A DNA stretch of 64,000 nt from Kalaharituber pfeilii (lineage: Eukaryota > Ascomycota > Pezizomycetes > Pezizales > Pezizaceae), in the NCBI GenBank assembly GCA_015179045.1, contig WHUZ01000026.1:620001-684000 (forward strand), in the 5' to 3' direction. The stretch's first letter is position 1, and every line of letters begins with the position of its first letter. Both the position numbers and the translations under genes were made by a program. This document shows, piece by piece, positions 16,929-62,900 of the stretch. The notes beneath the pieces are model-generated. The model saw only the letters and a list, made by a program, of their open reading frames with translations. It made no database searches and was not told the origin of the DNA.

Positions 16929-16985
16929 ATTTTTTTTTTTTTTTTTTAATATCATTAATCACTTGCCGCCCTAAGGGCTATGGCG
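16929..16985 (-). mobile_element. 57-bp LINE tail (hairpin plus poly(A)) with target duplication
   Basis: T17 followed by ATATCATTAATCACTTGCC and GCCCTAAGGGCTATGGCG, which is the terminal hairpin of the LINE family on the minus strand. ATTGGCAG flanks both sides (16921-16928, 16986-16993). Units 1 and 2 have single, uninterrupted sequence here. Confidence 0.9.
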
Positions 16986-17126
16986 ATTGGCAGTAGATTG
17001 TGAAAATCCCCCCTGGTTAGCTATAAGATTGATTATGCGAGGATTGTGCTCAGGATTATGTATGGCCTTGCCGCCGAACTGACATTTCTTCAATAACTGT
17101 GGGCTCATTGCACCCGTACAATCGTT

Positions 17127-17183
17127 CTTTTTTTAATTATTATTTTTATCATTACTCGCATGCCGCCTATGGGCTATGGCGAG
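17127..17183 (-). mobile_element. 57-bp LINE tail with target duplication
   Basis: CTTTTTTTAATTATTATTTT, ATCATTACTCGCATGCC and GCCTATGGGCTATGGCGAG, bounded by CGTACAATCGTT at 17115-17126 and 17184-17195. Units 1 (9870) and 2 (13276) read CACCCGTACAATCGTTTCTT without the insert. Confidence 0.92.
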
Positions 17184-17274
17184 CGTACAATCGTTTCTTA
17201 CCTTGTAGCTTTTCGTTATTTAACAATGTCTTCAAATTGAACTGTTACGATAACCTCACAGAACCTACATCAGT

Positions 17275-17492
17275 ATTAAGGGTCGCTCTCGGGTGAGTCG
17301 TAACGAAAAGAAACGGTGTTTGAGTGAAGTATATATCCTGTGCCTATCGAAGAGAAGAGAACAGAAGAAAGAAGATCAGGACAATAGAAAGACCTGCCAC
17401 AACCCCGGCAGCCCAACCACCTCAGGTACCTCCTTCCTCATCCAGTATCCTCATACTCTGCGGTACAATCCGCATTCTCTTTCCGTAACAGT
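17275..17492. mobile_element. About 214-bp unidentified insertion in unit 3
   Basis: Between CTACATCAGT and TTAGACTCC, where units 1 and 2 read straight through (CTACATTAGACCC), unit 3 has about 214 bp more. It begins ATTAAGGGTCGCTCTCGGG and ends TTTCCGTAA, with CAGT on both sides. The right end CCGTAACA resembles the end of the 559-bp LTR, so this may be a damaged LTR fragment. Confidence 0.5.
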
Positions 17493-17949
17493 TAGACTCC
17501 TTATTGAGTGTCGTACCTGTCCAACGTTTCTCCCTCTCCGGAGATAGCGAGGCGACGGACAGGACTTGGACTGCAGGTAATGTCAGGCAGCGGACGAGAC
17601 ACGCCCCACTCGTGTCGTGGTTTGCAAGGGCCGAGGCTCGTCGACATCGTGAGAGGAGTTCATATGAAAGCCTGCGCTAAAGGAGGTGGAAGCAGCAGAA
17701 TCAAGGCGTTTGCGGAGCAGCGGCCCTGTGGGGAAGCACCATGCTGTCGTAGGGGGGGAGATCTTGAAAAGAAACTTACACTGAAACCTTGTGTAGTACG
17801 TGGTACAACTGAAAGTATATCTCCGTTCCAGGGCCACGTTGCATGAGGCTGAGCTGATGATTGAGGCAGATTTGTTAAGGAGCAAGAGGAAGAAGAGCTC
17901 CTAACCATTTCAGCCGTACAGGCGGTGAGTTGATTAGAATATGCATATC

Positions 17950-18585
17950 AAGAGGATCAGCTAGGCAGCGGTAGGTAGACCCACGCCGGGTTAGGCGAGC
18001 AAGCTATAGAGGCGGAATTGAAAATTTGCGAGAAGGGCTCAAGCGATGTAGCTCCTATTTGGGTCAAGAGACACAGAGGTATAGAGGAATGGGAATGAGG
18101 AGACGAGGTCCCGAAGGTAAGGGCATACCAACTACTGCAAGAAGGGATGGTCACTGAGGCGGAGATGGGCGCAAATCTAGACTTCAAGAGACAGAGATTC
18201 AAGGACAGGAATAGGCTAGGATTGGCGTATAGGCCATTGCTGAAACTATATTAGGGAAATTGGTACAAGTGCTGGAAGCTCTTGGGCTAAGAGCATGAAA
18301 GTTCAAGATAGCAATGACAGAAGGGCTAAAATGCAGGTGCTGTGTGGAAGAGGAGAAGGAGACATCCCAACATCTGTGGGACAGGTGTGAGTTGTAGAAA
18401 ATAAGATGATCGGAACGAGAAAGGAGAGGGGGTGGGACGCAGTAACATTGGTGAGCGAAAGTAATGCGACGCAAGGGGTGGAAGGTGTCGCCCACAGGTG
18501 ATTGGGCGTAATTCTCGGTTGCTTTCTTAAGTAGGCTTTGTCGCCCTAGCCCATGAGGCGGTATGCGAGTAATTATTTTAAAGAG
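17950..18585 (+). mobile_element. Degenerate LINE 3' half
   Basis: Broken reading frames carry the family's signature words: VKRHRGIEEWE (RNase H motif, normally WIKGHKGIQGNE) at about 18061, RLGLAYRPLLKLY at about 18210, and CRCCVEEEKETSQHLWDRC at about 18330. The terminal hairpin TCGCCCTAGCCCATGAGGCG lies at 18541. Many stops make this one of the older copies. Confidence 0.75.
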
Positions 18586-18755
18586 ACAAATTTACACTAA
18601 CAAAAAAAGCAAATCTGGCTGTTGTTACTACAGTAGAGAGGTAAAAAGTAACGGGGATACTTTATGTAATGCGTGCCTGATCTTTTCTGGGCCGCTTTTT
18701 TTTTTTTTTTTTTTTAGTTTGTGTTTTTAGTATGAATTCTTCTCATTTTACATAC

Positions 18756-18841
18756 CTACTAGCCAGTAAAATATGTATTCGGACAGGGGTACTAAAGCAC
18801 AACATGCGCTATGTCCGAATACATATTTTACTAGCTAGTAG
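18756..18841. repeat. 30-bp near-perfect inverted repeat with 26-bp loop
   Basis: The left arm (18756-18785, CTACTAGCCAGTAAAATATG then TATTCGGACA) and the right arm (18812-18841) are reverse complements with a single mismatch; weaker pairing extends a few bases further out. The loop is 26 bp. It could be a tiny hairpin MITE, a cruciform or a transcribed hairpin. No duplication of the target is evident. Confidence 0.8.
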
Positions 18842-18877
18842 CTACCGGTACTAGCTCTGATATGTTAGGTGCTCCTT

Positions 18878-18923
18878 TTTTTTTTGTTTGAAAATCTTCA
18901 CTCGCATGCCGCCCTGTGGGCAA
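18878..18923 (-). mobile_element. 46-bp LINE tail, truncated inside the hairpin
   Basis: T-rich tail, then CACTCGCATGCCGCCCTGTG and GGCA, flanked by AGGTGCTCCTT at 18867-18877 and 18924-18934. The 5' part of the hairpin (TATGGCGAG on this strand) is missing. Confidence 0.85.
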
Positions 18924-19284
18924 AGGTGCTCCTTATAAGGATTCTATTTTGAATTTATAAAGTGCTCTTGTAGATTGGGTTTTCAATACGTAGGTACATA
19001 TTTACATGTAAGTAGTCTTCGACCACCGAAGTGGCGTTTTATTTGGAATTAAGAATGCAGATGCACAGTAGGAACTCGATCCAGCATATGGTAGACAGGG
19101 AGGGTTTTGTGGGATACCTGTGCATGAAATGTGTTGCAAAGGGAGAAACATCGTGTGGTACGGTTATGATACGTGATTGTCTACTTCGCCCAATGCACCC
19201 GAAGCTTAAGTGGAACTACAGTAGTTTGGTTAAATTAATATGATATAGTGCACTTGAACACACATAGGCGCAGATTTACATTGT

Positions 19285-19450
19285 ACTGTGGTGTAGCAGT
19301 TGAAATGCTAGCACATTGATTCTAGTAGTACCTTCGAGTCCCGCTCCGCCGGAGTAACCGGCTCTCCGTGTTATCTCCGCGCATAATGTAGCGCTAGACC
19401 ATTACCTGGTCTTTTTATGCGAGTACGGTAATGATATTACATTAAAAGGG
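19285..19450 (+). mobile_element. tRNA-derived SINE with a LINE-like tail (candidate)
   Basis: The head has A-box-like TGGTGTAGCAGTTGAAATG and, 33 nt on, B-box-like CCTTCGAGTCCCG, the pol III promoter layout of a tRNA. An unrelated body follows, ending GCGAGTACGGTAATGATATTA before an A-rich tail; this resembles the LINE terminus GCGAGTAATGATATT-A(n). TTACATT occurs near both ends (19274 and 19437) and may be the target duplication. No tRNA cloverleaf could be closed, so it is not a functional tRNA gene. Confidence 0.55.
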
Positions 19451-22400
19451 AAAGAAAAAGAAACAGAAATAAATCTGGTTTATTTGTCCAAAGCTATCGA
19501 GCATGCCAATAGTCAGGAGCGTTGCGATGAGTGCATGTATTCTACTACCAGTGGACAAACTCGAATCCATGAATCAGCTAGCTACATGCAGGCGCAGCTG
19601 AGGGGGTTAAATTACATGCAACCGGGGAGCACGTGCACCCTCGGCAGGACCATGCACTGCTGGCCAATATCTATGAAATGAAATTCTATTCAACGTTCCT
19701 CTCCGAGAGCCTGGGCATGTATAACACTACCCATTGTCAAAGTCTTGGAGCGACTTATCTCTATCCGCTCAAATTTAATGGTCTGCTACGACAGTAACAT
19801 TTGGAAAAGTACGGCATATTCCAGTACTCGAGTGCCCAATAAAAAAATCACGGATGTTGTGAAACCAGGCTACTAGTACTGTCAATTTTATATCAAACCC
19901 ACGAAGAGGATTGATGTAAGAATTAAATGTATACTGTGCTTTGACCTTAGAATATTGCTCCCATCTTGTCTGCTTACTCATCACCTCCATTTCTGAATAG
20001 AAGGTATAACTTCTAGTCTACATAACAACATGAAGCTGTATTTAAAAATTGTTTTGGAGAATATATGGAACTATTCTCCGATATGCTGGGACTTTTTTGC
20101 CTTTCATATGCATGCCATCTAATTGTTCAGAATTTATTGTGCCAAGTAACAAGGAAAAATATCGAAATATTAAGATCCGGTCGCCGGCCAGCTTTCCGAA
20201 GAGATTATCATCTCATGTCTACAATTACGGTACACCCAATCTCGATGTACACCTGCAATACCTATCTTCGCCTCTGAGCCAAGGAATCCATCCCCACTAG
20301 GAGCATTACATGCATTCGTGAGCTTACAAAGATACTTAGTAACAAGGTCCCCGTCATCTTTTCCCACTGCAAATCCGTAGGAACCAGTAAAAAAGAAAAA
20401 AGATTTTTATTAATAGCAACACAATTATTATTTACCGATAGGTAGCCCCCTACCTAATCCAGCCCCCTATTTGTCGTTTGCATGCATGTAGTCATCCCAC
20501 GCTTACCATAGAACTAAACTTTTCCTGCTAGTGCTTGTTTTCTCGCCTAACTTGTTAGTTTAGCCTAACATTATGTCTTGGTCTTAGCGTCAGTAGTGGG
20601 ATCAATGGAGCTAGCTTACATCAGAAGCTAAGAAACGTTGAATCGGGAATTTCCTTATTTAGGTAATGTATTGAACATTGATGATTTTACTCTGTTCAAT
20701 TGTGTCGCAATTTTTATAAGGGGGATTAAGACTGAATGGACAAGTTTTTCCATTCGGTGCTTCAATGGTAGGTATTCGGTTCGAAAGGTTGTAGTTTGGT
20801 AGTTGAATGCAAAATTCTACTCGGAGATGCACAAGGCAGGGAATAAATCAGGATGAGTAATGCTAAGGAATAATGAATATGTTCAATTCAATTTACTATC
20901 GCGGAGGCACGGTACAGTAACGATTCGTCATTATGTCAATGGTATTAAGAGTATGAGACTAAAGAATGGTACACTTTCAGCTTAGCTAATACCACTGCCA
21001 AGACCTCATTTGCAGCTCTATTCTGTCGCTCTTTAGTTTCGCCAAGCCTCTCCACCAAACTTGTTCTCGTGCCCAGATTCTCCACTATAACTGGAGCTGA
21101 GGCAGTGTCAAGTTACAAGACTAGGGCTGAGGGTTTTCTCTCCATCCGCGCGCTTGGAAACATTAAAGTAATGACCAGAGATCTTGGCACTCTCTCGGCT
21201 ACAGGGATGGAAAAAGATGAGCCCTCGTGAGATATGTACAAACTTTCTCACTCAGCGTTGGAGGGAAAGACTATAGTTGATACATAGTATTGGTTGCACC
21301 AATCGTTCGGGCCGAATACTAATACAACAAATCAGAGACTATCCCAAGTCAATACAGCGAGGTGAAAAGTAAGTAGTCGCCCTCTTAAGATGTCAATACT
21401 AGTACCAGCCATAAACTTTTGCACTTGTTATATGCTAACTTAAGCCTCAATGAAAAATTGGTCAAGTCTCCGAAATGAAAATTGTCACGGGATAAATGTT
21501 TCGGATTTACAACCGAATGGAACTCGCCGATTCCGGTGTGGTTATGATAGATTCCTAGAAGTACACCCAAGGGTTACAACTCGACGTCATTGCCAAAAAA
21601 TCATCTACTCAAAGCCGACAAGATTTTTCTCAGAAAAAATAAGATTATTTGATATCAATACCCAATTTTACTATTTTAACAATAAATCAAAGCGAAACAG
21701 TGGCTCTTTCTCTCCGATAAGATTGCGGTCGCTGCAGCCATGGGGCGGGAACGGTCTAGCGCAGGCGGTGTTGAAGTTTCTCTACACCGGACATGCAGTA
21801 AAGTATCGGAGTAAGCAAATAATGGTCATCACATTTGAGGTGCTTTCCAAATTCGATCAGGAAATGCCAAGCATTCTCACGGGACTATGTGGAAAGAGAT
21901 TGGTCGTGCTTCTATATTTGTGTACGTTACCTTCTTCCCCTGTCAAATTGGGATTCGGTGTTTTGGAAGCTTCCGCGCATCGCATGAAACGACAAAGTCC
22001 CTTAAATTTACTGCAGGCTGATGATGACAGTGCAGGGTTACAAGGTACTTGAGGGCGTAGCAACGTGGGGAAGTTTCCACAGTTGTTCTCGAAGGGCGGG
22101 AACGGTTGCCCAGCCCCCCATGTCCCTGTTATGCCCGGCGCATACCGCTCTACCGGCTGTACAATTTTTTTTTTCTGACGCGGTGAGCGAAAACCTGGCG
22201 CGAAGAGAGGAAGCCTTCCCGGAATTGGGAACTCGGGTAGTAGTATCTGACGCGAGCGAATCGGGGTCGAGATGGATACAAATACCCCCTCTCCATCCAC
22301 CCCACAAGCTCTCCTCTCCATTCCTCAGTCCTCACCAAACCAACCAACAAAGCACAGCAAAGTCATCGGCCCGCGGTCGACGATTATCTCCTTTGTGTTT
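19451..22400. other. No supported gene
   Basis: A 200-codon frame at 21450-22052 begins MKNWSSLRNENCHGINVSDL, but it shows no family resemblance and overlaps a long frame on the other strand. I judge it chance. The stretch otherwise holds A/T-rich intergenic sequence. Nothing repeated was noticed. Confidence 0.4.
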
Positions 22401-22835
22401 TTTTTTCTCTTTTCCTCTAATCTCCCCTTTTCTGCTTTTCGCCTCTTATTCATCGGAGTTTTTCTGAAGGGCCTTTTTTCTTTCACTAGAAAAGAAGACT
22501 GTGATAGAGAGACTTCCCGATTCGATTCGATTCGACTTTTTTGCCTTGACGGTTTTTTTTCACTTCGATTAGTTCCGGGCATTTTGGTTCCTGGGACATT
22601 TTTTTACACATCTTAGACAAGCGGTAGATAAGACTTCATTGTCCGGAGACATCGTTTGCCTGTTCCCGCATTTTTCCTTTTTTTCCTTCGCATCGATATC
22701 CGATAGCCATATACCCCTCCCCCGCCGTCAGTTTTCCTAGAAGCAAAAAACCGAAGCAAGCAGCCTAGCGCTCAAGCACGAAAAGAAAAGAATAAACACA
22801 AAAAAAAAAAAAAACAGCCAACATAAAAAGACAAA
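22400..22835 (+). promoter_or_regulatory. Promoter and leader of the Cys/Pro-rich surface protein
   Basis: The plus strand is pyrimidine-rich (CTTTTCCTCTAATCTCCCC, TTTTTCCTTTTTTTCC), typical of strongly expressed fungal genes. It ends in an A-rich leader (A16 at 22799-22814, then ACAAAATGA) just before the ATG at 22836. Confidence 0.5.
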
Positions 22836-26190: not shown

Positions 26191-26267
26191 TAAGTAGCTC
26201 CGGTTAGAATCATTCAGAAGCCGTCAAGAACAATGTATTGTGGAAGGAACATAAACGGGGTCTTGAA

Positions 26268-26557
26268 AGGGTTGAGGGAATGGACGTATATGATAGGGAG
26301 GGTAGATGGGCCAGAGTGTAGATGGTGTGGCATGGAAGAGGAAACATCTGAACACATCTGGTCCAGATTTGAGCTTTGGAGGAGGAGGTGGCCAGGGAGG
26401 TGACATTGGAGGGTAGCGCACTTTTTGTGATTTATTTTGACCAAAATTACCTATTTCGATCTTCTTCCGTCTTATTATTTCCTTTATGTTTAATCTCGTC
26501 ATAGCCTACGAGGCGGTATACGACTACAGTACTGATTTTTTTTCGAAAAGAAAAAAA
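26268..26557 (+). mobile_element. 5'-truncated LINE, 290 bp, with target duplication
   Basis: It encodes PECRWCGMEEETSEHIWSRF at about 26312 (the terminal CCHC-like motif), then the hairpin CTCGTCATAGCCTACGAGGC at 26496 and an A-rich tail. AAACGGGGTCTTGAA (26253-26267) recurs as AAACGGGTCTTGAA (26557-26570). The hairpin's inner stem is GCCT/AGGC instead of GCCC/GGGC, so pairing is kept. Confidence 0.85.
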
Positions 26558-27486: not shown

Positions 27487-27541
27487 TTTTTTTTTTTTTT
27501 TTTTTCATTAATCGCGTGCCGCCCTATGGGCTATGGCGATG
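27487..27541 (-). mobile_element. 55-bp LINE tail with 13-bp target duplication
   Basis: T19, then CATTAATCGCGTGCCGCCCT and ATGGGCTATGGCGATG, flanked by GCGGATGAGTTGT at 27474-27486 and 27542-27554. Confidence 0.92.
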
Positions 27542-32280: not shown

Positions 32281-32719
32281 TTTTTTTTTTTTTTTAAAAA
32301 AAAAATCATTAATCGCGTGCCGCCCTATGGGCTATGGCGATGTTTTAGTTACAAAAATGGAACGACATGTAAGGAGATAGGAGATGTAAGAAAATTGCTC
32401 TGTCTGCTTGAAAGAAAAGGGAAAATCATAATGAGGTAAGAAAACTCTTATAGTCCCGCCCAGTCCAGTATGTCCGCCAGTGTCTCTCCGCTGCCGTCTT
32501 CCTGCTTCCGGGGTCGGCATAGGTCGTCTTTGCCTTTTGGGCATTTCCGTCTCCAGACCTTGCACTGTGTTAGGATGTGTCGGGTGGTTTCGTTGTCTTC
32601 GCCGCACCAACGGCATTCAGGGCTGTCTCCGGTGCCGATTTTGTGTTGCCAGTAGCGTAGGCCCTTTCCACCAAGGATCCCGGCTAGGGTTGCGACCCTG
32701 CTGCCGAGGCGTTGTGGTG
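32281..32719 (-). mobile_element. LINE 3' fragment, 439 bp, nested in the pogo-like element
   Basis: On the minus strand: LRYWQHKIGTGDSPECRWCG, then EDNETTRHILTQCKVWRRK, the terminal CCHC-like motif in good condition. This is followed by the hairpin TCGCCATAGCCCATAGGGCG and a mixed A/T tail. TGATACCAATT flanks both sides (32270-32280, 32720-32730). The open coding stretch suggests a fairly young insertion. Confidence 0.92.
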
Positions 32720-32937: not shown

Positions 32938-33802
32938 GCACAGGGAGCCACCAAATCGATATATCTGGGCACATACGCCACAGTTAACGATGCGGAGTTA
33001 ATCGCCATAAGCGAAGCCTTGGACACGACGGAAGGGGAACTCCTGATACTCACCGACTCCAAAGTCGCCATAGCCAAGCTGAGGGGCATCGCCAACGGCA
33101 ACCACACCCAGGAAGGAACGGCACACAAAGCTAGAACGGCCTGGGAGAGACGGATTACCAAGGCGACCGGGACCTAGCAGTAATGTGGATCAAAGGGCAC
33201 AAAGGCATCCAGGGAAACGAAGAAGCGGACGAAGCAGCCAAGATAGGCACCTTCTTACAGTACTTACCCGAGGTCGTCACCGAAGCTGGGTTGAGACAGA
33301 ACGCCAGGCAAGCGAGGGCTCAAGAAAGAAACAGACTTGACTTATCCTACCGCCCATTACAGAGGCTTGGAAAACAGGTATCGAAGCTCGCGGGACTACT
33401 AGGCGCGAAAGCCCTACGAGCCTGGAGACACAAAATAGGGAAGGCAAACCGCCCGGACTGTCGCTGGTACGGCGAACACGACGAGACTACGAAACACCTC
33501 CTCGAAGCCTGCCGGGTGTGGTGAATGAGATGGCCCGGAGGAATGGAGGACATACGGAGACCGCCGAGGGTAGGAGACGACGACCTGGACCCATTACATA
33601 GCTTGATGGAACTAATTGGAGAAGAGGGATGAGTGGTAGGAGACGGTTCCGTTATTTGTTCAGTTATTTCACTTTTATTCCGTTATCTGTTCATTTATTT
33701 CAATTTTACTCGGAGGAGACAAAGGTCATTATGTATGTAACTACAACCTCGCCATAGCCCTTAGGGCGGCAAGCGAGTAATGATATTAAAAAAAAAAAAA
33801 AA
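32938..33802 (+). mobile_element. LINE 3' fragment with RNase H, 865 bp, nested in the pogo-like element
   Basis: It encodes the RNase H domain: TYATVNDAELIAISEALD (catalytic Glu), LLILTDSKVAIAKL (Asp), WIKGHKGIQGNEEADEAAK (His and Asp). Then come LDLSYRPLQRLGKQVSKL and CRWYGEHDETTKHLLEAC. A frameshift at about 33160-33180 splits the domain, and one Cys of the CCHC-like motif is Tyr. The hairpin CTCGCCATAGCCCTTAGGGC lies at 33749, then TAATGATATT-A(n). AAATTACCATGCC flanks (32925-32937, 33803-33815). RNase H places it in a Tad1/I-like group of non-LTR elements. Confidence 0.92.
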
Positions 33803-35304
33803 AAATTACCATGCCCTCACTGGCACTGCAGTTCCTCACTTGCCACCCCACAATCAATGCCAAATATATTCAATACCTTCCGAGAATACGGGTGAAGCAG
33901 GGCATGAATGTGGTAGCTCAATGTACATTTTATAAGACATTGTGTAATACTATTCAATTTTGCCATGTTACTCCTGACAACTTTTTGGAATTGCAGTGAG
34001 AAGGGTATTATCATGGAAAATACCCATAAAAATCTCCGCAAGTCAATTGTGCATGCTAGGCCTGGTCGTAAGGTCACAGCCACTGATGGTAGTCGAGAGA
34101 TTGTCACGCCACTTGAGACTGTGAATGCTGCAGGCAAGATTATACCACCATTTATTGTGTCGCAGGCAAAAAGTCATTGGCACAGCTACTACGGTAAGGA
34201 TGATGCGCATAAGCGGCCAGCAAGCTTTGATTACTCTAAGCACAGTTACTTAGATGATGGCCTCAGTCTTGAGTGTATGAAGTATCATTTTGAGCTGCAT
34301 ATGCGCCCTGGTACTGCATCCTTCGAGCCGCTGGCAGCAACCTCTGAACCAGCAACAATCCCTCCAGCACCCACTCGAATTACCAAAAGTGTCGGCACCT
34401 CCAACCTACCTAGCATCGAAAGTATACCTAGCAATTCTGCCAATTCTTCAAGATTGCTGCACAGGAGAGGATTGCAGCAGTAGCCACAAAGGAAAAAAGG
34501 GTGCAGATAAGCTCGAAAAGTAGAAAGCTGCTGCAGCCAAAAAGGAGGCCGCAGCAGCAGCTCATGTAGCAGCAGCCGCTGAGAAAGCTACCAACCGTGG
34601 ACAGGGGCATGGGTGCAGGCGTGGGTGAAGCTATAGACGAGGGGTTCTTGTGGTTGGTGTTAAGCGAGGGTCGGAGCTCATAGTAGTGGGGAGTGCGGTG
34701 GAGCCTTTCGAGTTGAATTCTGCATCACTGGAGTAACTGGAGGTGTCTGGAGGAGAGATGGTGGCTCCCACACAAGCCTTTTCACCTATAGAGCTTAATT
34801 CGGAACCAGCTGAGTCAGGATTTGAGTTCTTGCGGTCAGAATTGGAGATTGACAAGGTTGAGGCACCCTTCTAGTGCGGGAAATGGAATTTGACTGTATA
34901 TTTGAACATGCGTACAGTGCCATGCTGCAGATCTTGAGCTTCTGTTAATCCTATATTATAGTACAGTGTTTGGATATATCAGCATGAGTAGTACTGTGAT
35001 AGTGGGGGTGCTGTATCATGAGTATGAGCTTATAGGAGCCGGAGCGGGTTATTTTGTGGAGGTGATGAAACGTATAAAATTGTAGATCTGAAGATATAGC
35101 CTTCTCATCATTTTTTTTTTTTTTTTTTTTTTTTTCAAATTCGGAATCAGCGCATTTGGTTTAGCCTATATTCAATTTATTGCATATGTAGCTCATATAT
35201 TCCTGAAGATAATATAAAATAGCATCTGCATTTCCGGGTAAGGAATGGTGCGAAATACCCCAGTCGTTTCCTATCTGCAGATCGTATCCTATCCAGTACT
35301 GGTA

Positions 35305-37737
35305 TTTCCTAGATAAAAAATCCTCATTGCCACTCTCATTTAGTTGACGAAGCATAGGCTTCATAAAAGTAGCAGGTTTTTGTATATAGTGCCTAATGGC
35401 CAAGATAATATGTTTCAATGTTACACTACAATCCTGCTGCATAAGTAGAAGCCTATATTATCCTATTGTTCTATACCCTGTAGCATCATCAGTTCAAGTT
35501 GTAAGTTAATCGGGTCATTTGTCACTGTATATCTCAATTTCTTCCTCTTTGGACCCTATCGCTGACAGCGCTCAGATCACAATCACCAAGACTTTTGCTT
35601 GGTAATTATAATATCCGCATTACTATTTGCACCAATTTCATCCATGTATGAGCGTTGGAATTGGTAGCCATGGTTCGATATCCAAACTTCAGTTCAGTTC
35701 CTATGACAGGCAACGTTATGCTATCTACAGTATCGTTGACGGTTACTATACAGCCGATACGTTAGATTATGTGGCTCTACTGTATCCCTTAGGTCATATG
35801 CAAATATGCATACTATTGAGGGAGCAATGTTGCGAGGCATTTCCCCAGTGGAGTGAACGTGGGGAAGTTTTCATGCTTTACAATCTGAATGTGCGTTCAC
35901 GTATAGCTCAACGACACTGCAGCAGGCAGCTCTATTGTTGATTATCGCAGGGGTATGGTGTAATTAGAAATAGGGTTAAGGGTCAGGGCATCTCATACCG
36001 GTACTTGTTCAATTTGTATCCGGGTAATCGTGCGGTAAGAAATTGACTGCAGCCAATAGAATCATGCAAAGTCATGTGAGAGGTTAACGTAGTATGGCTG
36101 CACGCAGTGCACCTGGATTGGCGATTGACCATTAGCTCGATTGAGCCGGAATTTTCCCGAATGCTCTGTTTCAACTGCACGAACCACCCAAGCATTGGGC
36201 TTTGGCAGCTAGGTATTAGATTAAATGGCGATGTTTTCAATATAATACACTAAAAGCTCTTTTTTTTTTTTATATATCATTACTCGTGTGTCGCCCTGTG
36301 GGCTATGATGAGACGCACTAAAACCTCGTGGGTGCAACATCATGCTACCTCGACGATCATAGCTTTTGGCTTGATGCCGTCAAGGCTAGTAGTATGTATT
36401 TTAAACTAATCAGTAAACATATTGGGCATCAATATACAGACTACTTACTAATTCAACATGCAGTCGAAAATATCACACCCATGTGTGACTGATGAAAAGG
36501 CGAGCCGGTCTTGATTCAGGAAATACTGTATGTTTGTATCAAGCGCAGCCATATGGAGATTTAGCTTGCAAATCTTCTCCTCAATAACGGAAAGAACAGA
36601 TTTAACATCCGATATGTAATGAGGTACTAGTTTATAACGCTAAAGCACGTTTCATGTATCATGTAGGCATTAGGCCGCGGAAAGGTACTAGAATTCTTAC
36701 GGGAGACGGGAAGCGTTTGATTCTTGGCTACAAATGTAGCCGATTTCCGCATTTAATTCGCCAGTGCGCCTTATCCTATATGACGAGCCGGAATTCCAGC
36801 GATATTCCATGCAATACTGCCAAGGCTCCTCACCATTGAGATCCCAAAGCGTGGAACATTACATTCCGTTTGTTCCAGTACTGAAGTAGATGATATGGCT
36901 TACATGAACGTTGCCTTCAGCGAACTCGATATCCAGGCAACAGGGTTTAAGAGCTTCACGTATGATGACAAGTAGGCTATGTCGCCGATCATGGTGTGCC
37001 TGCGCTGATGCAGTGTTTCATATGAAAATATATTTCCTTCGTAATGTTTGCTACAGCTTCAGCAATAGATTTATCACCTGCAGCATTTCTTTGACCTCGA
37101 AAATTGGTTTTCGCAATTATATTGAGCTCAGAAAACAATCCAAGCTTCATCTTGATGTGAACCAGTGCAAACAAGCAGGCATAGAGTGAACTCATCCTTG
37201 CAAGCACGTTAGCCTGCGATTTGTGAAGTGTGTAACATTATGCCTAGTGTCTATGCCGGTAAATATACCTCTATTGCAGCAGGGAAGGGCAATCCTTGTT
37301 CAGGGCGCACAGATAAACAAAGGAACAAATGAACCGCACAGGGGAATCTTTGAATTTGTATTTTGTTAGATCCAGAGCTGCACCAAACACTCATTTTCCA
37401 GTTCTGCAGGAAGATTAAAGTAATATTTGTCACTTGCAAGAAATTCATTGCCGGTCCTTGATATACTAATAGGTTTCAATTAGTCTCGTGCTTAATCATG
37501 CGGACAATTCCTTGTACTTTAGCCAAGATCCCACAATGCCGATGTGCATTGCTTCCACCTGCAGTTTGTAGTCTGTTCACGGAAGCTCCTCTAGCTTTAT
37601 GCCGCCAATATATCGCAGAGTGCCTAGCCGCTTCGCGTTGCTCGTTGGTTAGCTCAACTATGATGCCGAAATTGTGAAACACATTGTATAGCTCACTATA
37701 GGTGCCTGTGCACAATAAATTTGGGCAAAATTTCACT
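35305..37737. other. Intergenic, no supported gene
   Basis: Short frames only, none recognisable (for example the minus-strand 86-codon frame at 37476-37736). One LINE tail lies at 36260-36315. Confidence 0.4.
36260..36315 (-). mobile_element. 56-bp LINE tail with 12-bp target duplication
   Basis: T13, then ATATATCATTACTCGTGTG and TCGCCCTGTGGGCTATGATG. CACTAAAAGCTC (36248-36259) recurs as CACTAAAACCTC (36316-36327). The single difference in the duplication and changes in the hairpin suggest moderate age. Confidence 0.85.
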
Positions 37738-37783
37738 CCAAGGAATATCGTTATTTGCTCTTATCAGAGGCGGGTGAAGAGTG

Positions 37784-37817
<34 letters not shown>

Positions 37818-37867
37818 AAGGAATTTCGTTACTTGCTCCTATCAGAGGCTGGTGAGGAGTAGGTTAA
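37738..37867. mobile_element. Poly(A) run between about 52-bp direct repeats
   Basis: Left copy 37738-37788 (CCAAGGAATATCGTTATTTG and on) and right copy 37816-37867 (CCAAGGAATTTCGTTACTTG and on) differ at about eight sites; A28 lies between. If this is a retro-insertion, the target duplication is unusually long; alternatively a tandem duplication was separated by poly(A). Confidence 0.7.
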
Positions 37868-37869
37868 TG

Positions 37870-38647: not shown

Positions 38648-38656
38648 CCGAGAATA

Positions 38657-38725
38657 TCGCCATAGCCCTCAGGGCGGCATACGATATATGATATTAAAAA
38701 AAAAAAAAAGAAAAAAAAAAAAGAT
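38657..38725 (+). mobile_element. 69-bp LINE tail with 9-bp target duplication
   Basis: TCGCCATAGCCCTCAGGGCG, GCATACGATATATGATATT and an A/G-interrupted poly(A), flanked by CCGAGAATA (38648-38656, 38726-38734). It starts exactly at the base of the hairpin. Confidence 0.88.
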
Positions 38726-38979: not shown

Positions 38980-39135
38980 AGGGCCTTTTCCTTTACCTTA
39001 TTATTATCATCATAGTTTAGTTTCTCTACAGTTTCCCTGCATTATTTCGCTGTATCTCTCATGTAACTAAATCGCCATAGCCCTTAGGGCGGCAAGCGAT
39101 CAATGATATAAAAATAAAAATAAAAATTCTGCCGC
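38980..39135 (+). mobile_element. 5'-truncated LINE 3' UTR
   Basis: ATCGCCATAGCCCTTAGGGC at 39070, GGCAAGCGATCAATGATAT, then an AAAAT-repeat tail. The preceding about 90 bp resemble the 3' UTR of the 865-bp copy (CTGTATCTCTCATGTAACTA against ATTATGTATGTAACTACAAC). No target duplication found. Confidence 0.7.
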
Positions 39136-40675: not shown

Positions 40676-40729
40676 CTCGCCATAGCACTTAGGGCGGCAT
40701 GCGAATAATGATATAAAATATAAAAAAAG
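40676..40729 (+). mobile_element. 54-bp LINE tail with 14-bp target duplication
   Basis: CTCGCCATAGCACTTAGGGC, GGCATGCGAATAATGATAT and an A-rich tail, flanked by GACAGGCTTAGTAC (40662-40675, 40730-40743). It starts exactly at the base of the hairpin. Confidence 0.93.
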
Positions 40730-40743
40730 GACAGGCTTAGTAC

Positions 40744-45637: not shown

Positions 45638-47748
45638 TCAGATCATCAAGAAGTCCCATCCGTTAGCAACCATGACATCTCTCCATCGGCAGCCGCCCAT
45701 CGCTGTGGCTGGGTTGTCCTCGAGACGCCACACCTCGCCAAGAAGCCTGAACATCCTGCCCCAAGATCCTTCGGTGCCCTCCGCTCCGAGCATGTCGTTT
45801 CGCCTGTATAGGAATTGTCGGAAGAGGCTGCCTTGAGTGGAGACGCTGCCGCCAATCAGGTACACCCAGACAAGAGACCGGTCGAACCCATCGACGCCCC
45901 CCGGGATCCGCTCGAGCGTAGCCACAAGCTTGTTCAGCAGCTCCTTAACCTGGATCTGGTTCCTGTCGAATCCAGGTACTAGCGAGCACAAGTAGATGCG
46001 GGCTGCGTATCGGAACGCGTCCGTCATGTGGTGCGCAAGTGTGGTCTGGTTGATTCCGCCGTCGGAGCGGACGATTGGGCCCACCGGGAGGCCACCGCTC
46101 GCTGCAAGGGCAATGTCTTCGGTCTCATCGATCTTGCTGGCGAGAGACTTAACATGTTCGCAGAGATCCATGTCGGAGAGCATGTTGTCGTTCTTAAGGG
46201 CCTCGAGGCATGCGATTTCGGAGATCAGGTACATCACTTGGTCGTCGCAGCCCATGAGCTCCATGAGACCCGAGTAGCCGCGGCAGAGGTGTTTCTCGCG
46301 ATAGGTATCAGCGAACTGCGGTGCGCGGCCAAGCATGGTTGCACCGAGGATGTCAACCCACGCAGTTAAGGTCATGTTGATAGGTGCGGGCGCGTACTGA
46401 GCCGGGATGCCGCCTGGGGCTGTTATCTCGTTGAGTGCTTGGGTCAGGTTGAGCTTATGCACAAGGGAAGTCGCTGCCTGGAAATGGCTGTGCCATGGAA
46501 TGTCGGGAAGGGTGTCATCTGGATGCCCGACGACGCATTGGAAGAGGATCATGGCAAGGGTGGCCTCCAGGATCTGCAGATGATCGGTGTCGTTCTTAAG
46601 GGTCTCGCAGAGCTCCGAGATCGTAGCATATCGGTGTCTCATGATATCTTGGTCAATGTATTCGGATGGGATCTGCTGTGTTGACTTGAGGTGAAGAGCC
46701 GCGACTGAGAGACAGCAATGCATGTAGCATTTATTCGTTGCAAGGGCGGGGAGCACAACTTCCTGTGTCGCCATGCCGCGGAGGCTGATGTCGAGTATGG
46801 GGAAGATGAGGCGGACAACAGACGCGAGGAAATGGTCGAAGAGCTGCCTGTCGCTGTCTTCTACCGGGAGGCATGGTGCTGAGGAGGTTGTGGAAGAGAG
46901 AAGTTCGGATGTGGTGGATATCGATGAAGGAGTGGGCTGGCCGAAGGCGAAATCAAGGAACTGGAAGTTCTCGATGCCTTCCATCTCGGGGCTGCCCATG
47001 TTCGAGTGGAAGCCATCGAGGCCGTTGAAGGTGGTGTCGCCGGGCGCGACCGACAGTCCGGCGCCGTACGAGGGCCGCCGGAAGGCTGTAGTTGTGAAGG
47101 CACTTGAGTTCTTGCGTACGGGAAAGCTGTTGACGAAGGTTTGCTTCTCAGTGATTACATCTACGTCGAAGGCGCCGAAGGGATATCCAGCATGTTGGGT
47201 GTGTGGGTGGGCGTGGAATGCGTGGAGTTGCTGAGTGTCCATGGGCATACCGTACAGGCCATCATCGAGGTCATTCTCCAGCGAGTATCCGCTCTCGATG
47301 CTCAGCGACCGCCGGCGTGAGCCAGGCAAGCCGAGCTGACTTGATCGATCGCTGGTGCAGTCGCTTGTCGGGGCGCTCCTTGAGAGCTCTGGAGGCGAGT
47401 CGGCGCTCAGTGGTGATACCTGAGCCTTCTCTGAGAGCTTTGTGCGCTTGATCAGCATCTTGATGGCCTCCTTCTGCCGCTTCCTTTGGTCCACATTGCT
47501 CCACCATACTGGTCTCTTGTATTCACAGTTCAAGCCGAGGTGTTTGCAGGCCTTGCAGAGCGGCTTTCCCTCGTCGCATTTTTTCCGTCGTAGTCGGCAG
47601 GTGAAGCATCCTATGAATCCCTAAATTAGTACATCAAGTGCTGACAATACCTCTTATCTCAATGGAAATTGAAAACGGAAACGGCGGTCCCACCTGTCCG
47701 AGAGCGACGATGTGTCTTTGTGCTAGTTTTGGGAGCCTTAGGCTGCAT
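45638..47748 (-). CDS. Zn2Cys6 fungal transcription factor, 675 aa
   Basis: Exon 1 (47748-47694) encodes MQPKAPKTSTKTHRRSRT. An 83-nt intron (GTGGGA...TTCATAG) leads to exon 2 (47610-45638). The splice completes the DNA-binding cluster CFTCRLRRKKCDEGKPLC then KACKHLGLNC (CX2CX6CX6CX2CX6C). The basic linker WWSNVDQRKRQKEAIKMLIK follows, probably for nuclear import and dimerisation. The rest (about 270-650) looks like the fungal-specific middle homology region, with Leu-rich helices such as FPILDISLRGMATQEVVLPA, HCCLSVAALHLKSTQQIPSE and ILEATLAMILFQCVVG. The end VMVANGWDFLMI is typical of the Pro1/ARCA-like group. It should be a nuclear DNA-binding regulator; targets are unknown. It is the best-preserved gene here and stands alone, with a long upstream region. 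Confidence 0.92.
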
Positions 47749-57500: not shown

Positions 57501-59460
57501 ATATGTTGTTACGCAGCTGTGAGGCTCGGTTTGACTATGAACAGTAAGAACAATGAAAGTAATTCGTCATCTAGCCTGTACCTTTCAACTCGCTGATTAG
57601 CTCAGACCTGATGCCAACCAGACAACTATCGAACATAACTTATTTATTCTCAGCAACATTGACATGCATGTCATGCTGCTTCATACTCCGTTGTCAATTA
57701 TTGATACAGCATTGATCATAAACGTGGCTTATGAACTACAGTTACCACTGGAACTCGCTGCTCACTTTACAAGGTAGTATTAGCGACTTAATTCATTCTC
57801 CGACAAGTTGGATACTATGGCAAGTTCTGATGGATGGCTGAATGCTCCACTCCTTTATAGACATGCGGGCTTCAACACCTGCAGAATGCGTGGTAGAATG
57901 AATCGGAATCACAGTCATGGTAGCCTCCGGCCAGCCTTCGTTTGAGATTAGGCTTCGGTATTGTGGGGTACCTGGTACGAGAACTCGGGCGCCCCGCATG
58001 TTCCTGGGCATTCTATTGTATCGATTGTGTAGATATGACGATACTACATGTATTAGTATAGAAAGTATACATGAGGAACAGCAGATAATAATATAGGACA
58101 TGGAATATTACCTGTACGTTCATATCGCCTTTCTTTTGAAATCCAATTTTCTGGAGCTATTATTATCAGGGCTGCAAAGGAATGACATGGCCTTACAATT
58201 TGATTTATGTGATATGATACTACTACTAGTAGGAAAAGTCACAAAGATGAAAGGGAAATTGCTAGCCAGTTTGGGGTCACTGCAGAAAGGCATCGAGTAC
58301 TTGAAGTCATTGCGGTCATTGCGCGACAAGTCGTATGTGTGGTATCGCGGTGTCTCAAAGCTAGCCTTAAGTGCCGTTCTGCATGTTGCAGAGGCTCGAC
58401 GTATTCCAAATAGGGAACTAACCATTTGTAAGTAACGCTGCAGCCAAGTAATTCTACTCGTAGATAAGGTTTTGATTAGCAGTCCGGTAACTTCGGAAAC
58501 CATTCCAATCCCGCTCGAGCTGGAAGAGCAATAGATCCTTCCCGCGCCCATGTCACTCATTATATATTTGAGTACCTCTTAAGAATTGGACTGTAAGATA
58601 TACCAGTAGTTTTGCTTGCTTACCTTTTTAAGTGTTTCACTCCACTCTGCGAATAAGGTAGTTATAAACATATATAAGACAACAAATTACCAAAAGATTG
58701 ATTACATAACACATTTGCCAAGATGCTTCAGTAGCAACGTATGTACTAAGCGCCTGGTCCGAGGCTAAATAAGGTGAGCTTATGCAATTGTATGGCTTGG
58801 ATTCCTAGAAATGGACGTAAAGCCATTGTGACAATTAAGACGATTATTTTCCGGACCATGCGTCAATTATCGCATCACTCGTTTTTCCACTTATCCGATG
58901 TATATTCTAACGCCTATTTAGATGCCTTAATTCCAGCAGAAGAAATGCATTAAAGCAACAATTCTAGCCGTACGTACAAAGAGCCCAATGCCATCCTAGC
59001 GTGTATGAATACTGTTATGGCTACATATAGGGGAAAACAGAAATATCAAGCCCATTTTATAGCGCACTAATTAGGTCTTATAAATCCCGATCCCGAATGG
59101 TCAGGACTGGTGTGTGGTATCTGATCATGAACCTTGTGGCCAGGCTTGAAGTGGAGGCATATAATTTACGGCAGTCACATAGGATTGTCAATCACTGATA
59201 TCAAAGCACATTTCGATTGTGTGATGTCCAACCAATACCAGCATCTTTCTTACGCCTTATGTAGGCGATATCTCATGCCATGCCTAATCTCCGAATTTTC
59301 GCATTTTTCACTAGTGATGTCCATCGGCACATGAAGGTAGCCTTCCGTTGTTGGAACTCCCACCTCAGTTCTCACACGCCAATGGAAAGTTGCGACAGCC
59401 CTAGCCCATGAAGGAAACGTCGGTAAGCGTTGTCGTCAGGCCCTACGACTCAGGAACAGG
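48500..59460. other. Long gene-free stretch
   Basis: About 11 kb without a recognisable gene. Frames over 100 codons (53962-54366 plus, 58100-58435 plus, 58120-58560 minus) overlap on opposite strands and have no motifs. 53400-53620 is very A/T-rich. I found no inverted-repeat element or LINE tail here by eye, in contrast to the left half. Confidence 0.4.
49855..49940 (-). other. tRNA-like fragment (weak)
   Basis: On the minus strand GTTAGTCTAATGGTGAAGC fits a pol III A box and part of a D arm (compare tRNA-Glu/Asp, TAGTNTAATGG). The B-box-like word CCGGTTCGAAAC lies before it, not after it, so the order is wrong for a functional tRNA. It may be a rearranged tRNA-derived repeat. Confidence 0.25.
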
Positions 59461-59462
59461 TA

Positions 59463-59912
59463 CAGTTACACCTTGCTATACCGGACGACTAAAATCCAGC
59501 ATTTTCTGTCCGGTTTAACCTAGCGTCCGGTATAACAAATTTTGCAGGGGTGGCCGCTAGGGGGTACAGAACTTAGTAAGCCAATTGAGAGGTATGATAT
59601 GTCTGGAGACTGGTGTTCCAGGGCGTATCCTCTTCCTAATCTCCTCAGATATTACATAACTTCAAACAATGAATTCAAGAAATAAAGAACATTTCAAAAA
59701 CACCACAATAACACACTAAAGGTACAAAAAGCAGTCTCATGATTTTGGCCTGTGTCTGGTTCAGCTAACTAGTTTATATGTAATTTGAATTTAAAAGTCT
59801 ACAGTTTTGTTGTCCGGCCCAGTTTAACTGGGCATCCGGTATAGCTAATTGTTTTGTATGTAAATTGCAAAAACCGTCAAGGGTCGTCCGGTATAGGCGC
59901 TAGGTAAATCTG
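59463..59912. mobile_element. Non-autonomous pogo/Tc1-mariner-type element, 450 bp
   Basis: Left end CAGTTACACCTTGCTATACC then GGACGAC; the right end is its imperfect reverse complement (about 33 bp). TA flanks both ends (59461-59462, 59913-59914). GTCCGGTATA and CCGGTATAGC recur as subterminal repeats. The ends share CAGT...ACCTTGCTATA with the 647-bp element at 25544. Confidence 0.85.
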
Positions 59913-59914
59913 TA

Positions 59915-62900
59915 TCACGTAAGTAGTCCCCCCTGTATTGTCGGTGCATTACACATGAAAAAATAAACGAAAAAAAGAATTCAAAATATGCCCTGGTCCC
60001 CCAACCATGTACCGAAGCTTTGGATAAAAACCCTGGGCCACTCGGAGTTGCGGTCATACAAACGAGCACAGGTCCAGCCTTGAGCTAGAGATGTGGCGGA
60101 GCAGGAAAGGGAGATACTCGGATTAGTTTCGATATCGAAGTACTTATTTCAAGTTCCCAGGGCCTTAGGGAGAATTCTACATCTCGTGCGCCGGGCCTTC
60201 TGCTTCTCCCTAACTAATCTACCCCTAGGAAGATGCAAGAAGTTTGTACAGGCCACTTTGCAGTTATGCCGGTCGTACTCGGGAAAGTGATCCAGCCCGA
60301 CTGTCCAGCCGTTAGAAAAATCTCTGGCAATTAACATCCCTTTTGCTGTTCATGCAGTGATAATGCTTGGCTTGTGACAAACAGACAAGGGCAAGGAGTT
60401 CTGTTCCATGTGCTTAAGCTTCTCGAGCTGCGCGTGATAGGATCAATGCTAGAGGCATCCGGGACAGGAATCCGCAGTTGCCACTTGCAACCTGCACTGC
60501 CTATGCCAAGCCTAGGGCTGGCGGTAGGCACACCCGCCCGATAACCATGACCACTTTGTGGCCCAAGCCTCCAACAACAGCCATTGCATGGATAATTGTA
60601 GGCTAACAAGACGAATTTCTCGCAGTGTGAGGCTAAGCTTCTCCAGTGCCTTCTGGAAAAACCTGAAACGAAGCGAGGCAACCAAGGTACCAAACTGGCG
60701 GGGCAGAAACGCAATGAAGAGCGAATTAAAGGTCTACTATACTTAGAACGCGGGGTGTGGGGGATGCTTCCGTTTCAGATTGATCGACATTGAGGCCTAT
60801 ATAGCGCCCGAGGGGCCGAGGAGCTTTTGTGTGACGGAGTGTATTAGCTGCACACATGTCGCATTTTCTGGTTACTGTTAACAGTTCAATGGCGAAAATG
60901 GCTGTACAGCTGACAGGGGATAGGATCGTGAGGTTAGCGTCGGGAGAGGCTTCCACCGGTTTATACCAATGCAGGAAGTATTCAGACTGCTCTGTGGACA
61001 CTGCAGCGGAGAAGGCAGCTTGCTTCTGTCAATAATATTGGGGGTGGAAGTGAATTTGAAGCTGCATTACGGGTAGTAAAATGCTCTTGCCATAATAGGT
61101 TGAATCTCCGGGCTGTCACACCATCTACAAACAGTTGCCTGGAGCCAGATGTACTTGGCCGAAGAGGGTGCATCGCCATTTGATGGTTTATCCTAGGCCC
61201 AATGGTTACAATTCGTGAATAACCAGGATCAAATAACGACCATTCCTCTATTGGCATCACTCTCAGTGTACGCATGGTGCCACACGGGTCATCCATTATT
61301 TACATCACCAAACAACTAATAATTTCCACCGAGCCATGAAAGGCAGGTGCGAGCATAGTAACTCCCAGATATATTCGTCCTAGTATAGCCACCAAGGGTC
61401 CCACTCCACGCGAGATAACAGAATCCATGCCAACCCCGGTGTATATTAGACCACGTGCAACATCTTTTGCGATGACAGGTCGGCCAGATGTATAGCAAGG
61501 TGCACTCGGAAGAATACCAGTGGCTTCATACTAGCATATATTGCAAATCATTGTCCGTGCGCTTCGGATCAATCTGGGATAGTTCTAGAAACCTGGAAAG
61601 GCAAGGCCACCAAGCTTCAGAAACGTGTCTGATGATTGAGTAGAAGGCGACATATGAGAAAAGCAATTACTATACTTGTTTCACGATATACTATATGCGA
61701 GAAAGCACAAGGACAAGGCTTAATGCTTGGCGCAATTAGGATTCTATAGCTAAATATAACCTCAAGCAGATTCCATTTTTTTATTTTTTTTTTATTTCAT
61801 TACTCGCGTGCCGCCCTATGGGCTAGCAGATTCCATTGCACCGGCTTATTTATAAGTAAATAGTATTGTTTATATTTAATAACTACGCAGACCTGCAAAA
61901 GCATACATGTATGAAACCACAGAAAATGCCAGAAGCTGGTACGCAGACAGGCGCTGGCCGCAATGAAGAACGTTACCTGAGGACTTCAACTGTATGTATA
62001 TGCCGTATGTCATGTCCGTTCGCATATAGTTGTCATTCATTATCCTAGCTAGAATTGCGGGTAACTCTCCCGTACATCTGCAAACGGGTGGCGCGGTATA
62101 TAGGGAGCCTGATAAGGCGAAATTTGCTCGTCATGAATCGTGACATCCTGAAGGTATGATGATTTCCTGAGAGAGCTTGCAGAACAGCACAGTTTCAAGT
62201 TGAGTGATCGGTCATGGTCGCCTAGCTACAGTATTCTAAAGCTATCCAAGTACAGTTAATATGACCTGAATTACCATTCAGACGATATTGTGATGTGGCC
62301 CGCAGCATGGCCTTCAGGAACTTTGTTCATGACTTTGATTTCCCAAGATGCTGGTAGCCGGACATATTAGGTACGACTATCCATATAATGCATCTGAGGG
62401 TACGTAAGAATGCAGATTCCGTTTTGACGGTGAGCGATGTAGCTACGCCTACTGAAAGTAAAATAGGTCTGAGAACTGTATAAATTTGCAATGCGGATGA
62501 AAAGGAAATTCAGTTACTAGACCATAACCGTCTAGCTAACTTGTCATTGCCAAGCATCATTTGTACTATCATTGCAGTCTCTGCACCCGCTTCGTACAGT
62601 CAGATGAATAAGGGTGGGCTCACCTCACGTGAGTTTGAGGTAACGTGATTCAGCCCTATATGCGTCCTGAACACCACCTGCCGGGGCAGCCTTTGGGGTG
62701 CGGATATGGGGGTGTGGGATTGCACGCCTCGCTGCGGCAATCTGAAGCAATATGGCAGTCGACGATATACTCATTTCTAATTGATATGCATTGTGGTAAA
62801 CGTGCACGTGTCCCATGCGGTGACCGGGTGCCCACGTACCCATACACCATGCAGAATCCCGAAGAAACACTTTCGCGAGTTTGGGATAAGGCCATCATGT

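What the first reader, a model, noticed from the sequence alone, without database searches (positions are those of the whole stretch)
16929..61824. Hairpin micro-retroposons: at least eight 46-69-bp insertions made of a LINE's terminal hairpin plus poly(A)
Insertions at 16929, 17127, 18878, 27487, 36260, 38657, 40676 and 61778 each consist of the element-strand hairpin (outer stem CTCGC/GCGAG, inner stem GCCC/GGGC), TAATGATATT and an A-rich tail, with 8-14-bp target duplications. Six of eight begin at the base of the hairpin; two stop inside it. Random 5' truncation should spread the ends out, so the clustering suggests that the hairpin blocks reverse transcription or that a short hairpin RNA is itself the template. 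The 290-bp LINE copy has GCCT/AGGC in the inner stem, a compensating change that argues the fold is selected. Known LINEs have conserved 3' stem-loops read by the reverse transcriptase; a population dominated by hairpin-only copies would be unusual.
Basis: partly seen in the sequence, partly recalled or inferred. Interest (0 to 1): 0.78.

Follow-up and report, generated by a model that had tools for sequence, protein, structure and literature searches.

The report
Truffle LINE's hairpin-limited tiny insertions
In a desert truffle's genome a family of jumping genes has left many very short insertions that hold only the RNA hairpin at the gene's end plus a run of A's, as if the copying enzyme often lets go just after it has copied the hairpin.

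Summary
In detail: all eight insertions are there (46-70 bp; hairpin, linker, A-tail, 8-14 bp target duplications). The window is from Kalaharituber pfeilii or a very close relative. GCGAGTAATGATAT occurs 6,516 times genome-wide (<=1 mismatch; reversed control 25). Of 179 sampled copies 84 have a confident target duplication (swapped-flank control mean 4.8). 27 of the 84 start 23-29 nt above the anchor, at the hairpin's 5' base (control 0); 1 starts at 33-49; 37 scatter from 50 to 900 nt. The fold is selected: outer pair C-G 2,957, A-T 1,441, mismatched 64; inner pair T-A 717, C..A 27. The source is an APE-RT-RNase H LINE, Tad1-like, whose subfamilies share the hairpin but little of the 3' UTR above it. 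Hairpin-only copies are about a third of the called insertions, not a majority. Best reading: abortive target-primed reverse transcription on leaving the bound hairpin. Chief rival: a hairpin-protected RNA stub is the template.

The parts
16929..16985 (-). hairpin-only insertion (arms ATCGC/GTGAT), A-tail, 8-bp target duplication CTGCCAAT
17127..17183 (-). hairpin-only insertion (CTCGC/GCGAG), 12-bp duplication AACGATTGTACG
18878..18923 (-). insertion ending inside the hairpin (starts TTGCCC), 11-bp duplication AAGGAGCACCT
27487..27541 (-). hairpin-only insertion (ATCGC/GCGAT), 13-bp duplication ACAACTCATCCGC
36256..36315 (-). hairpin-only insertion (arms CTCAT/ACGAG), 8-bp duplication TTTTAGTG
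38656..38725 (+). hairpin-only insertion (arms ATCGC/ACGAT), 8-bp duplication CCGAGAAT; outside the counted set (4 mismatches to the anchor)
40676..40729 (+). hairpin-only insertion (arms CTCGC/GCGAA), 14-bp duplication GACAGGCTTAGTAC
61778..61824 (-). insertion ending inside the hairpin (starts AGCCC), 13-bp duplication AATGGAATCTGCT
32938..33802 (+). 865-bp 5'-truncated LINE copy: end of ORF2 (RNase H part and cysteine-rich end, frame broken), 3' UTR, hairpin 33748-33777, A-tail, 13-bp duplication AAATTACCATGCC
3425..3463 (-). hairpin module of a longer LINE copy (TGTAATTAA upstream); no confident duplication
32303..32341 (-). hairpin module of a longer LINE copy (TGTAACTAA upstream); no confident duplication
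39071..39109 (+). hairpin module of a longer LINE copy (TGTAACTAA upstream); no confident duplication
14521..14559 (+). hairpin module, worn copy; no confident duplication

Best explanation
These are products of an APE-type LINE (Tad1-like) that recognises its own RNA by a 3'-terminal hairpin. The enzyme holds the hairpin, nicks the target, primes on the A-tail and copies the linker and then the hairpin itself. To copy the hairpin it must melt it and give up the contact that tethers the RNA. At that point it often lets go: either because the grip is lost, or because the new cDNA, now holding both arms, folds on itself and peels off the template. The unfinished cDNA is joined to the target, leaving hairpin + A-tail between target duplications. 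Copies that get past this point run on and end at scattered places. Shown: LINE source, target duplications, the peak at the 5' base, some ends inside the hairpin, none found before it, selection on the fold. Inferred: hairpin binding by this enzyme, and release as the cause of the peak.
For: Peak: 27 of 84 called ends at 23-29 nt, 3.86 per nt, against 0.57 at 0-22 (0.39 after removing 4 misplaced calls), 0.12 at 50-149 and 0.02 at 300-900; seen in both sample halves (12 of 44 and 15 of 40). Similarity upstream, which does not use duplications: of 30 copies that the earlier caller put at the base, 28 resemble no other copy above the hairpin, while 28 of 34 put at >=100 nt do. Same machine for short and long copies: duplications median 12 and 12 bp, tails 19 and 22 nt, hairpin variants in like proportion. 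Ends inside the hairpin are 3-5 times denser than at 50-149 nt, which fits drop-off in and just after the structure. No duplication-flanked stop before the hairpin (0 of 13). A LINE with a 1,101-aa ORF2 (endonuclease, RT, RNase H) ends in this hairpin. Among 26 of 32 long copies the module is 85% identical pairwise, the 70 columns upstream 41%. Covariation. In print, ORF2 proteins of zebrafish L2 LINEs bind their 3' stem-loop (PMC4176376, abstract and passages) and human L1 ORF2p holds a stem-loop just above the A-tract (PMC10830416, passages).
Against: Most ends fall in one narrow place rather than being spread through the hairpin, which a discrete template with its 5' end there would explain at least as well; by my inspection only 10 of the 14 calls inside the hairpin stand. 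In the human L1 assay it was unpairing the stem that gave shorter, more varied products (PMC10830416, passage), which the authors lay to initiation; it does not show stops at a paired stem. No binding or copying assay for this enzyme exists in what I saw. 95 of 179 copies have no confident duplication, so shares are uncertain.
Confidence: 0.55

Rival explanations
1. The template itself is short: LINE RNA is cut or eaten from its 5' end up to the hairpin, which is shielded by its fold and by the bound LINE protein; the RT then runs off this stub and a retroposon of some 50-70 bp results.
For: Most ends at the base sit from 1-2 nt inside to 3 nt outside the outer pair, where a 5'-3' exonuclease or a cleavage at the stem base would leave them; several of the extra bases (AC x4, C x3, AAC, GTAAC, AACAC) look like LINE sequence. 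The stretch 33-49 nt holds 1 of 84.
Against: Ends inside the hairpin are also enriched and need a second cause. Ends spread over several nt, though bases shared with the target blur them. No RNA data were available.
Confidence: 0.32
2. The hairpin blocks the RT as it arrives.
For: A stable hairpin is there (-11.2 to -12.9 kcal/mol for four 30-nt variants).
Against: The RT arrives at the 3' arm first. 0 of 13 A-tailed TAATGATAT sites (<=1 mismatch) without the 3' arm have a target duplication, and 113 of 118 exact A-tailed TAATGATAT sites have the arm (the reversed core gave 1 such match among 6 sites). The peak is after the 5' arm.
Confidence: 0.04
3. A separate short source gene (SINE-like) makes a hairpin RNA that the LINE mobilises.
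For: The class is uniform in length.
Against: Hairpin-only copies carry much the same mix of variants as long copies (outer C-G/A-T 16/4 against 21/5; inner C-G/T-A 23/5 against 28/4), so many parents, not one. 46-70 bp leave no room for a Pol III head; Rfam finds no RNA family in the window at gathering scores.
Confidence: 0.06
4. DNA-level element such as a MITE, or chance.
For: Short, hairpin-forming, with duplications.
Against: A-tails of varying length, duplications of 8-16 bp that differ from copy to copy, source LINE in the same genome; five swapped-flank control sets give 0 calls at 23-29 nt.
Confidence: 0.01

Closest known systems
Stringent-type LINEs with a 3' stem-loop read by ORF2 (ZfL2-1/2-2: PMC4176376, abstract and passages; SART1, R2, L2 and fungal Tad1 as named in PMC5135761, UnaL2 in PMC3747384, passages)
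   Same: Conserved 3'-terminal hairpin with compensating changes, close to the tail, shared while the rest of the 3' UTR diverges
   Different: In what I read there is no report of insertions that pile up at the hairpin's 5' base; here an A-tail plus hairpin, and a class of hairpin-only copies
MGL LINE of Magnaporthe and its MINE chimeras (PMC2104539, passages and its section 9)
   Same: Fungal LINE; RT leaves the template at preferred places, with hairpins predicted nearby; 10-20 bp duplications
   Different: There the RT jumps to another RNA, 230 nt or more from the 3' end, at GCC*A/U; here insertions end without a second RNA, mostly 24-27 nt above the anchor, 2-5 nt beyond the GCC. Only 1 of 84 calls lies at the GCC|A point, and that one is an over-extended match
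Human L1 ORF2p holding a stem-loop above poly(A) (PMC10830416, passages)
   Same: Architecture: stem-loop held at one side while the A-tract is primed
   Different: That paper says the L1 3' UTR lacks a like stem-loop (PMC5135761 argues for a conserved one); no hairpin-limited copies in the passages I saw
Plant L1/SINE pairs with a covarying 3' hairpin (PMC3747384, passages)
   Same: Compensating changes in a terminal hairpin; CGAG conserved beside the stem there, GCGAG is the 3' arm here
   Different: Different LINE clade; the shared CGAG may be chance

Membership tests
Tad1-clade LINE | One ORF2 with apurinic-type endonuclease, RT and RNase H | tested here: met
   L089 ORF2, 1,101 aa: Exo_endo_phos_2, RVT_1, RNase_H over their cut-offs
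Tad1-clade LINE | RT falls in the Tad1 clade on a tree | not tested
   No tree built; of 4 relatives at E<=1e-20 the only named one is a Bipolaris maydis protein, 25% identity; the clade name is recalled
Stringent-type LINE | Conserved, covarying 3'-terminal stem-loop | tested here: met
   5 of the 9 pairs hardly vary and give no signal either way
Stringent-type LINE | ORF2 binds, and needs, its own stem-loop | not testable with these tools
   needs binding and retrotransposition assays
Stringent-type LINE | A partner SINE with the same 3' end | not tested
   no search was made for one
SINE | Pol III-derived head (tRNA, 7SL, 5S) | tested here: not met
   the eight inserts are 46-70 bp of hairpin, linker and A-tail only; Rfam gathering search of the window: 0 matches
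LINE 5'-truncated copies made by TPRT | A-tail and target duplications of variable length | tested here: met
   84 of 179 called against a control mean of 4.8
LINE 5'-truncated copies made by TPRT | 5' ends at various places, without a sharp 3'-proximal peak | tested here: not met
   27 of 84 ends in 7 nt; that LINE copies are truncated at various positions is a passage of PMC3747384, that a sharp peak is unusual is recalled
MINE-type chimera | Second RNA fused at the 5' end at GCC*A/U | tested here: not met
   1 of 84 ends at the GCC|A point, itself over-extended; fused RNAs were not searched for beyond reading the short inserts

The most novel reading that the evidence does not exclude
A discrete RNA stub, the hairpin with its A-tail shielded by the LINE's own protein from decay, is the real template, so that one LINE family runs two life cycles: full RNA for itself and a stub that gives some of the smallest retroposons on record. 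Scaling the sampled share (32 of 179 to 32 of 84) to the 6,516 anchors gives roughly 1,200-2,500 of them in this genome.
Probability: 0.25. Interest if true: 0.78.

Novelty: new variant of a known kind. Interest (0 to 1): 0.58.

Why it matters
It gives a natural record, with thousands of copies and near-nucleotide resolution, of where a LINE enzyme lets go of its RNA. Why most LINE copies are 5'-truncated is an old question; here one step, leaving the recognised hairpin, stands out and can be tested in vitro. The genome-wide compensating changes are also a clear natural test that a LINE's 3' hairpin is under selection as a fold. Practical: insertions of some 50 bp are probably too short for usual repeat annotation and could disrupt genes unseen (inference).

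Tried and rejected
Literal RT block at the hairpin: looked for linker-only insertions and found none with a duplication (0 of 5 exact, 0 of 13 with <=1 mismatch; reversed core 1 of 6). The detector is weak for so short an insert.

GCC*A/U rule of MGL: not met. Single short source gene: variant mix argues against.

The first duplication caller and the second gave the same peak but over-extended some matches and took nested hairpins for duplications; the third is the one counted, while rests on the second. Even, by inspection, 4 of the 14 calls at -1..22 nt are wrong or misplaced: L016:6480 and L083:898 are nested hairpins, L034:321 (internal deletion) and L073:810 (over-extended match) begin at the base. 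Without them 10 remain inside, 9 of these at 0-22. The statistics use the uncorrected numbers unless said.

Dropped before counting: the A-tail test (11 A in 20 nt) and anchor test (<=3 mismatches) leave out worn copies, among them window 38656 and the LINE end at 18556; copies with the same flanks were kept once. The sample is the 177 copies plus 2 of L089, neither of which has a confident duplication. The 60 fragments L029-L088 (C2-C7) and the 20 pieces of C1 were picked because they hold an exact anchor from one search's listing (or lie next to one), so the sample leans to well-kept copies and to few contigs, though not by insert length. Upstream reach was capped at 900 nt, so the far end and any full-length peak are not measured. 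In one search, 15 of 158 copies without a recognisable 5' arm were left out; 27 copies without a duplication call also lacked similarity upstream, some of them hairpin-only by eye, others long copies just under the threshold.

Covariation counts are of copies, not of events: two main lineages (C-G and A-T outer pair) carry much of it by descent. Loops, the bulge base and the inner T-A pair recur in both backgrounds (listings), which speaks for more than one event, but no tree of events was made. The inner C-G count is a remainder, not searched. In one search two of nine pairs were never matched by 2,000 shuffles, two more rarely (1 and 27), five gave no signal. The third change (9 copies) is nearly one lineage. 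GCGAT copies were sought with a pattern of their own.

Literature: no report of hairpin-limited insertions in the listings (open-licence papers only). One search (species name) listed one paper naming Kalaharituber, PMC7550596, not opened.
Full report
What the window is. A Zn-cluster transcription factor at 45638-47533 (-) has the Fungal_trans_2 domain and is 100% identical over the 631-aa query to a protein of Kalaharituber pfeilii, a desert truffle; the next, from Terfezia claveryi, is 81%. The window is C179:620001-684000 of an assembly of 78.0 Mb in 360 contigs.

The observation. All eight insertions are as described: hairpin, TAATGATATT or a worn form of it, A-rich tail, and the same 8-14 bp on both sides. 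Six start at the hairpin base, two inside. The core motif occurs 6,516 times in the genome with at most one mismatch; the pattern read backwards 25 times.

The source. Longer copies run up from the same hairpin into a 3' UTR and the end of an ORF with RNase H-like sequence (window 32938-33802). A search with 81 residues of it scored 150 of 1,188 candidate places and gave 151 matches; the listed ones other than itself are 49-83% identical and lie in frames of up to 1,101 aa. RVT_1 has 1,113 candidate places, 150 scored. One place, L089, holds a 1,101-aa ORF2 with endonuclease, RT and RNase H domains, then about 110 nt of 3' UTR, then ATCGCCATAGCCCACAGGGCGGTAAGCGAT, AAATGATAT and 14 A; it has no confident duplication. 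So the hairpin is the terminal structure of a family of APE-RT-RNase H LINEs. Four relatives came up at E<=1e-20 in a search that scored 7,993 candidates, the best 29% identical, one of the four named (Bipolaris maydis). I call it Tad1-like from recall; no tree was made.

The hairpin is kept as a fold. It folds as a 5-bp outer stem, a 4 x 5 nt internal loop, a 4-bp inner stem and a 3-nt loop. In 133 of 158 copies, chosen only on unpaired positions, the outer pair is C-G 94, A-T 23, T-G 7, others 9; 2,000 column shuffles never reached the observed 124 standard pairs; the inner top pair is C-G 110, T-A 15, T-G 2, others 6, likewise never reached; five of the nine pairs hardly vary and tell nothing. 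Genome-wide, exact counts: C..G 2,957, A..T 1,441, C..T 22, A..G 42 for the outer pair, 4,462 in all; T..A 717, C..A 27, T..G 52 for the inner pair. Both inner states occur with both outer states and with many loops (listings). A rare third change, at the second outer pair, has 9 copies, nearly one lineage. Among 26 of 32 longer copies with called duplications the 39-nt module is 85% identical pairwise, the 70 columns above it 41%. This is what a recognition element looks like: it stays while the sequence around it goes.

Where the copies begin. From 355,872 bases (L001-L008 overlap other pieces in part) plus L089, 179 distinct A-tailed copies were anchored at their 3' side, so the choice does not depend on the 5' end. 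With a caller that asks for a match between the flank after the tail and a place up to 900 nt upstream, 84 of 179 pass; with flanks swapped among copies, five times, 4.8 pass on average. Ends: 1 at -1; 13 at 0-22; 27 at 23-29; 5 at 30-32; 1 at 33-49; 5 at 50-99; 10 at 100-199; 9 at 200-299; 5 at 300-499; 8 at 500-900 (controls 0, 0.8, 0, 0, 0.4, 0.2, 0.2, 0.6, 0.6, 2.0). The outer pair lies at 25. The densest 7 nt, 24-30, hold 30 ends; the best window away from the base holds 6 and lies inside the hairpin. By inspection 4 of the 14 calls at or below 22 nt are wrong or belong to the base; 10 remain. Region-based and copy-centred halves agree (12 of 44, 15 of 40). A test that does not use duplications: similarity to other copies above the hairpin is missing in 28 of 30 copies put at the base by the earlier caller and present in 28 of 34 put at 100 nt or more. 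A further 27 copies without a call also lack such similarity; some look hairpin-only, some are long copies just under the threshold, so 32 of 179 is a floor for the class. Duplication and tail lengths do not clearly differ between short and long copies (12 and 12 bp, P 0.19; 19 and 22 nt, P 0.06).

What this says about mechanism. In target-primed reverse transcription the enzyme starts in the A-tail and meets the 3' arm first. A block would leave linker-only inserts; none with a duplication was seen. The ends lie after the hairpin is copied, with a lesser excess within it. Two readings remain. In the first, the enzyme lets go as it leaves the hairpin, because copying destroys the contact that held the RNA or because the cDNA folds on itself. 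In the second, the RNA itself began there, a stub left by decay that stops at a folded, protein-covered end. The excess inside the hairpin favours the first; the sharpness and the narrow margin would suit the second. I put them at 0.55 and 0.32. That ORF2 binds 3' stem-loops is known for other LINEs (PMC4176376, abstract and passages) and L1 ORF2p holds one above poly(A) (PMC10830416, passages); in that L1 assay it was unpairing the stem that gave shorter products, so it does not by itself predict stops at a paired stem. For the LINE here, binding is inferred.

Against what is known. A 3' hairpin in a stringent LINE is known, including in fungal Tad1 elements (PMC5135761, passage). RT breaks at preferred places in a Magnaporthe LINE are known too, but as template jumps at GCC*A/U, 230 nt or more from the end (PMC2104539, section 9); that rule is not met here. 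I found no report of a class of insertions limited by the terminal hairpin (searches listed under Tried and rejected). I file it as a new variant of a known kind.

Noticed in passing
window 37738-37865: Two imperfect ~50-bp direct repeats (CCAAGGAATATCGTTATTTGCTC... and CCAAGGAATTTCGTTACTTGCTC...) flank a run of about 30 A; either an unusually long duplication around a tail-only insertion or two copies of another short repeat.
   Followed up: partly
window 18757-18846: Long inverted repeat (TAGCCAGTAAAATATGTATTCGGACA / TGTCCGAATACATATTTTACTAGCTA) just beside the insertion at 18878; looks like a small MITE or palindrome.
   Followed up: no
window 8612-9714, 12072-13117, 15837-16894: A unit of about 3.5-3.8 kb is repeated in tandem three times, each with two overlapping ORFs; the second reads like a beta-trefoil/fascin-like protein to my eye. 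No Pfam match for the third copy's ORF.
   Followed up: no
G000:C1: Of 32 listed exact GCGAG-type anchors on the 2.99-Mb contig C1, 28 lie in the first 563 kb and none between 0.57 and 2.32 Mb; two of the 12 listed GCGAT-type anchors do lie there. Suggests repeat-rich and repeat-poor compartments.
   Followed up: no
L016:6480-6560 (+) and L083 (- strand): Hairpin insertions lying in or right beside the A-tail of another hairpin copy, so tails may be targets.
   Followed up: no
L048:791, L026:7679, L017:7000, L067:803: Inserts with only 13-19 nt of element (part of the 3' arm and bulge plus the linker) and A-tail, with 9-14 bp duplications (two with one mismatch); the smallest called.
   Followed up: partly
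window 33965-34483: ORF that looks like a piece of a pogo/Tigger-type DDE transposase to my eye (recalled resemblance); no Pfam match.
   Followed up: no
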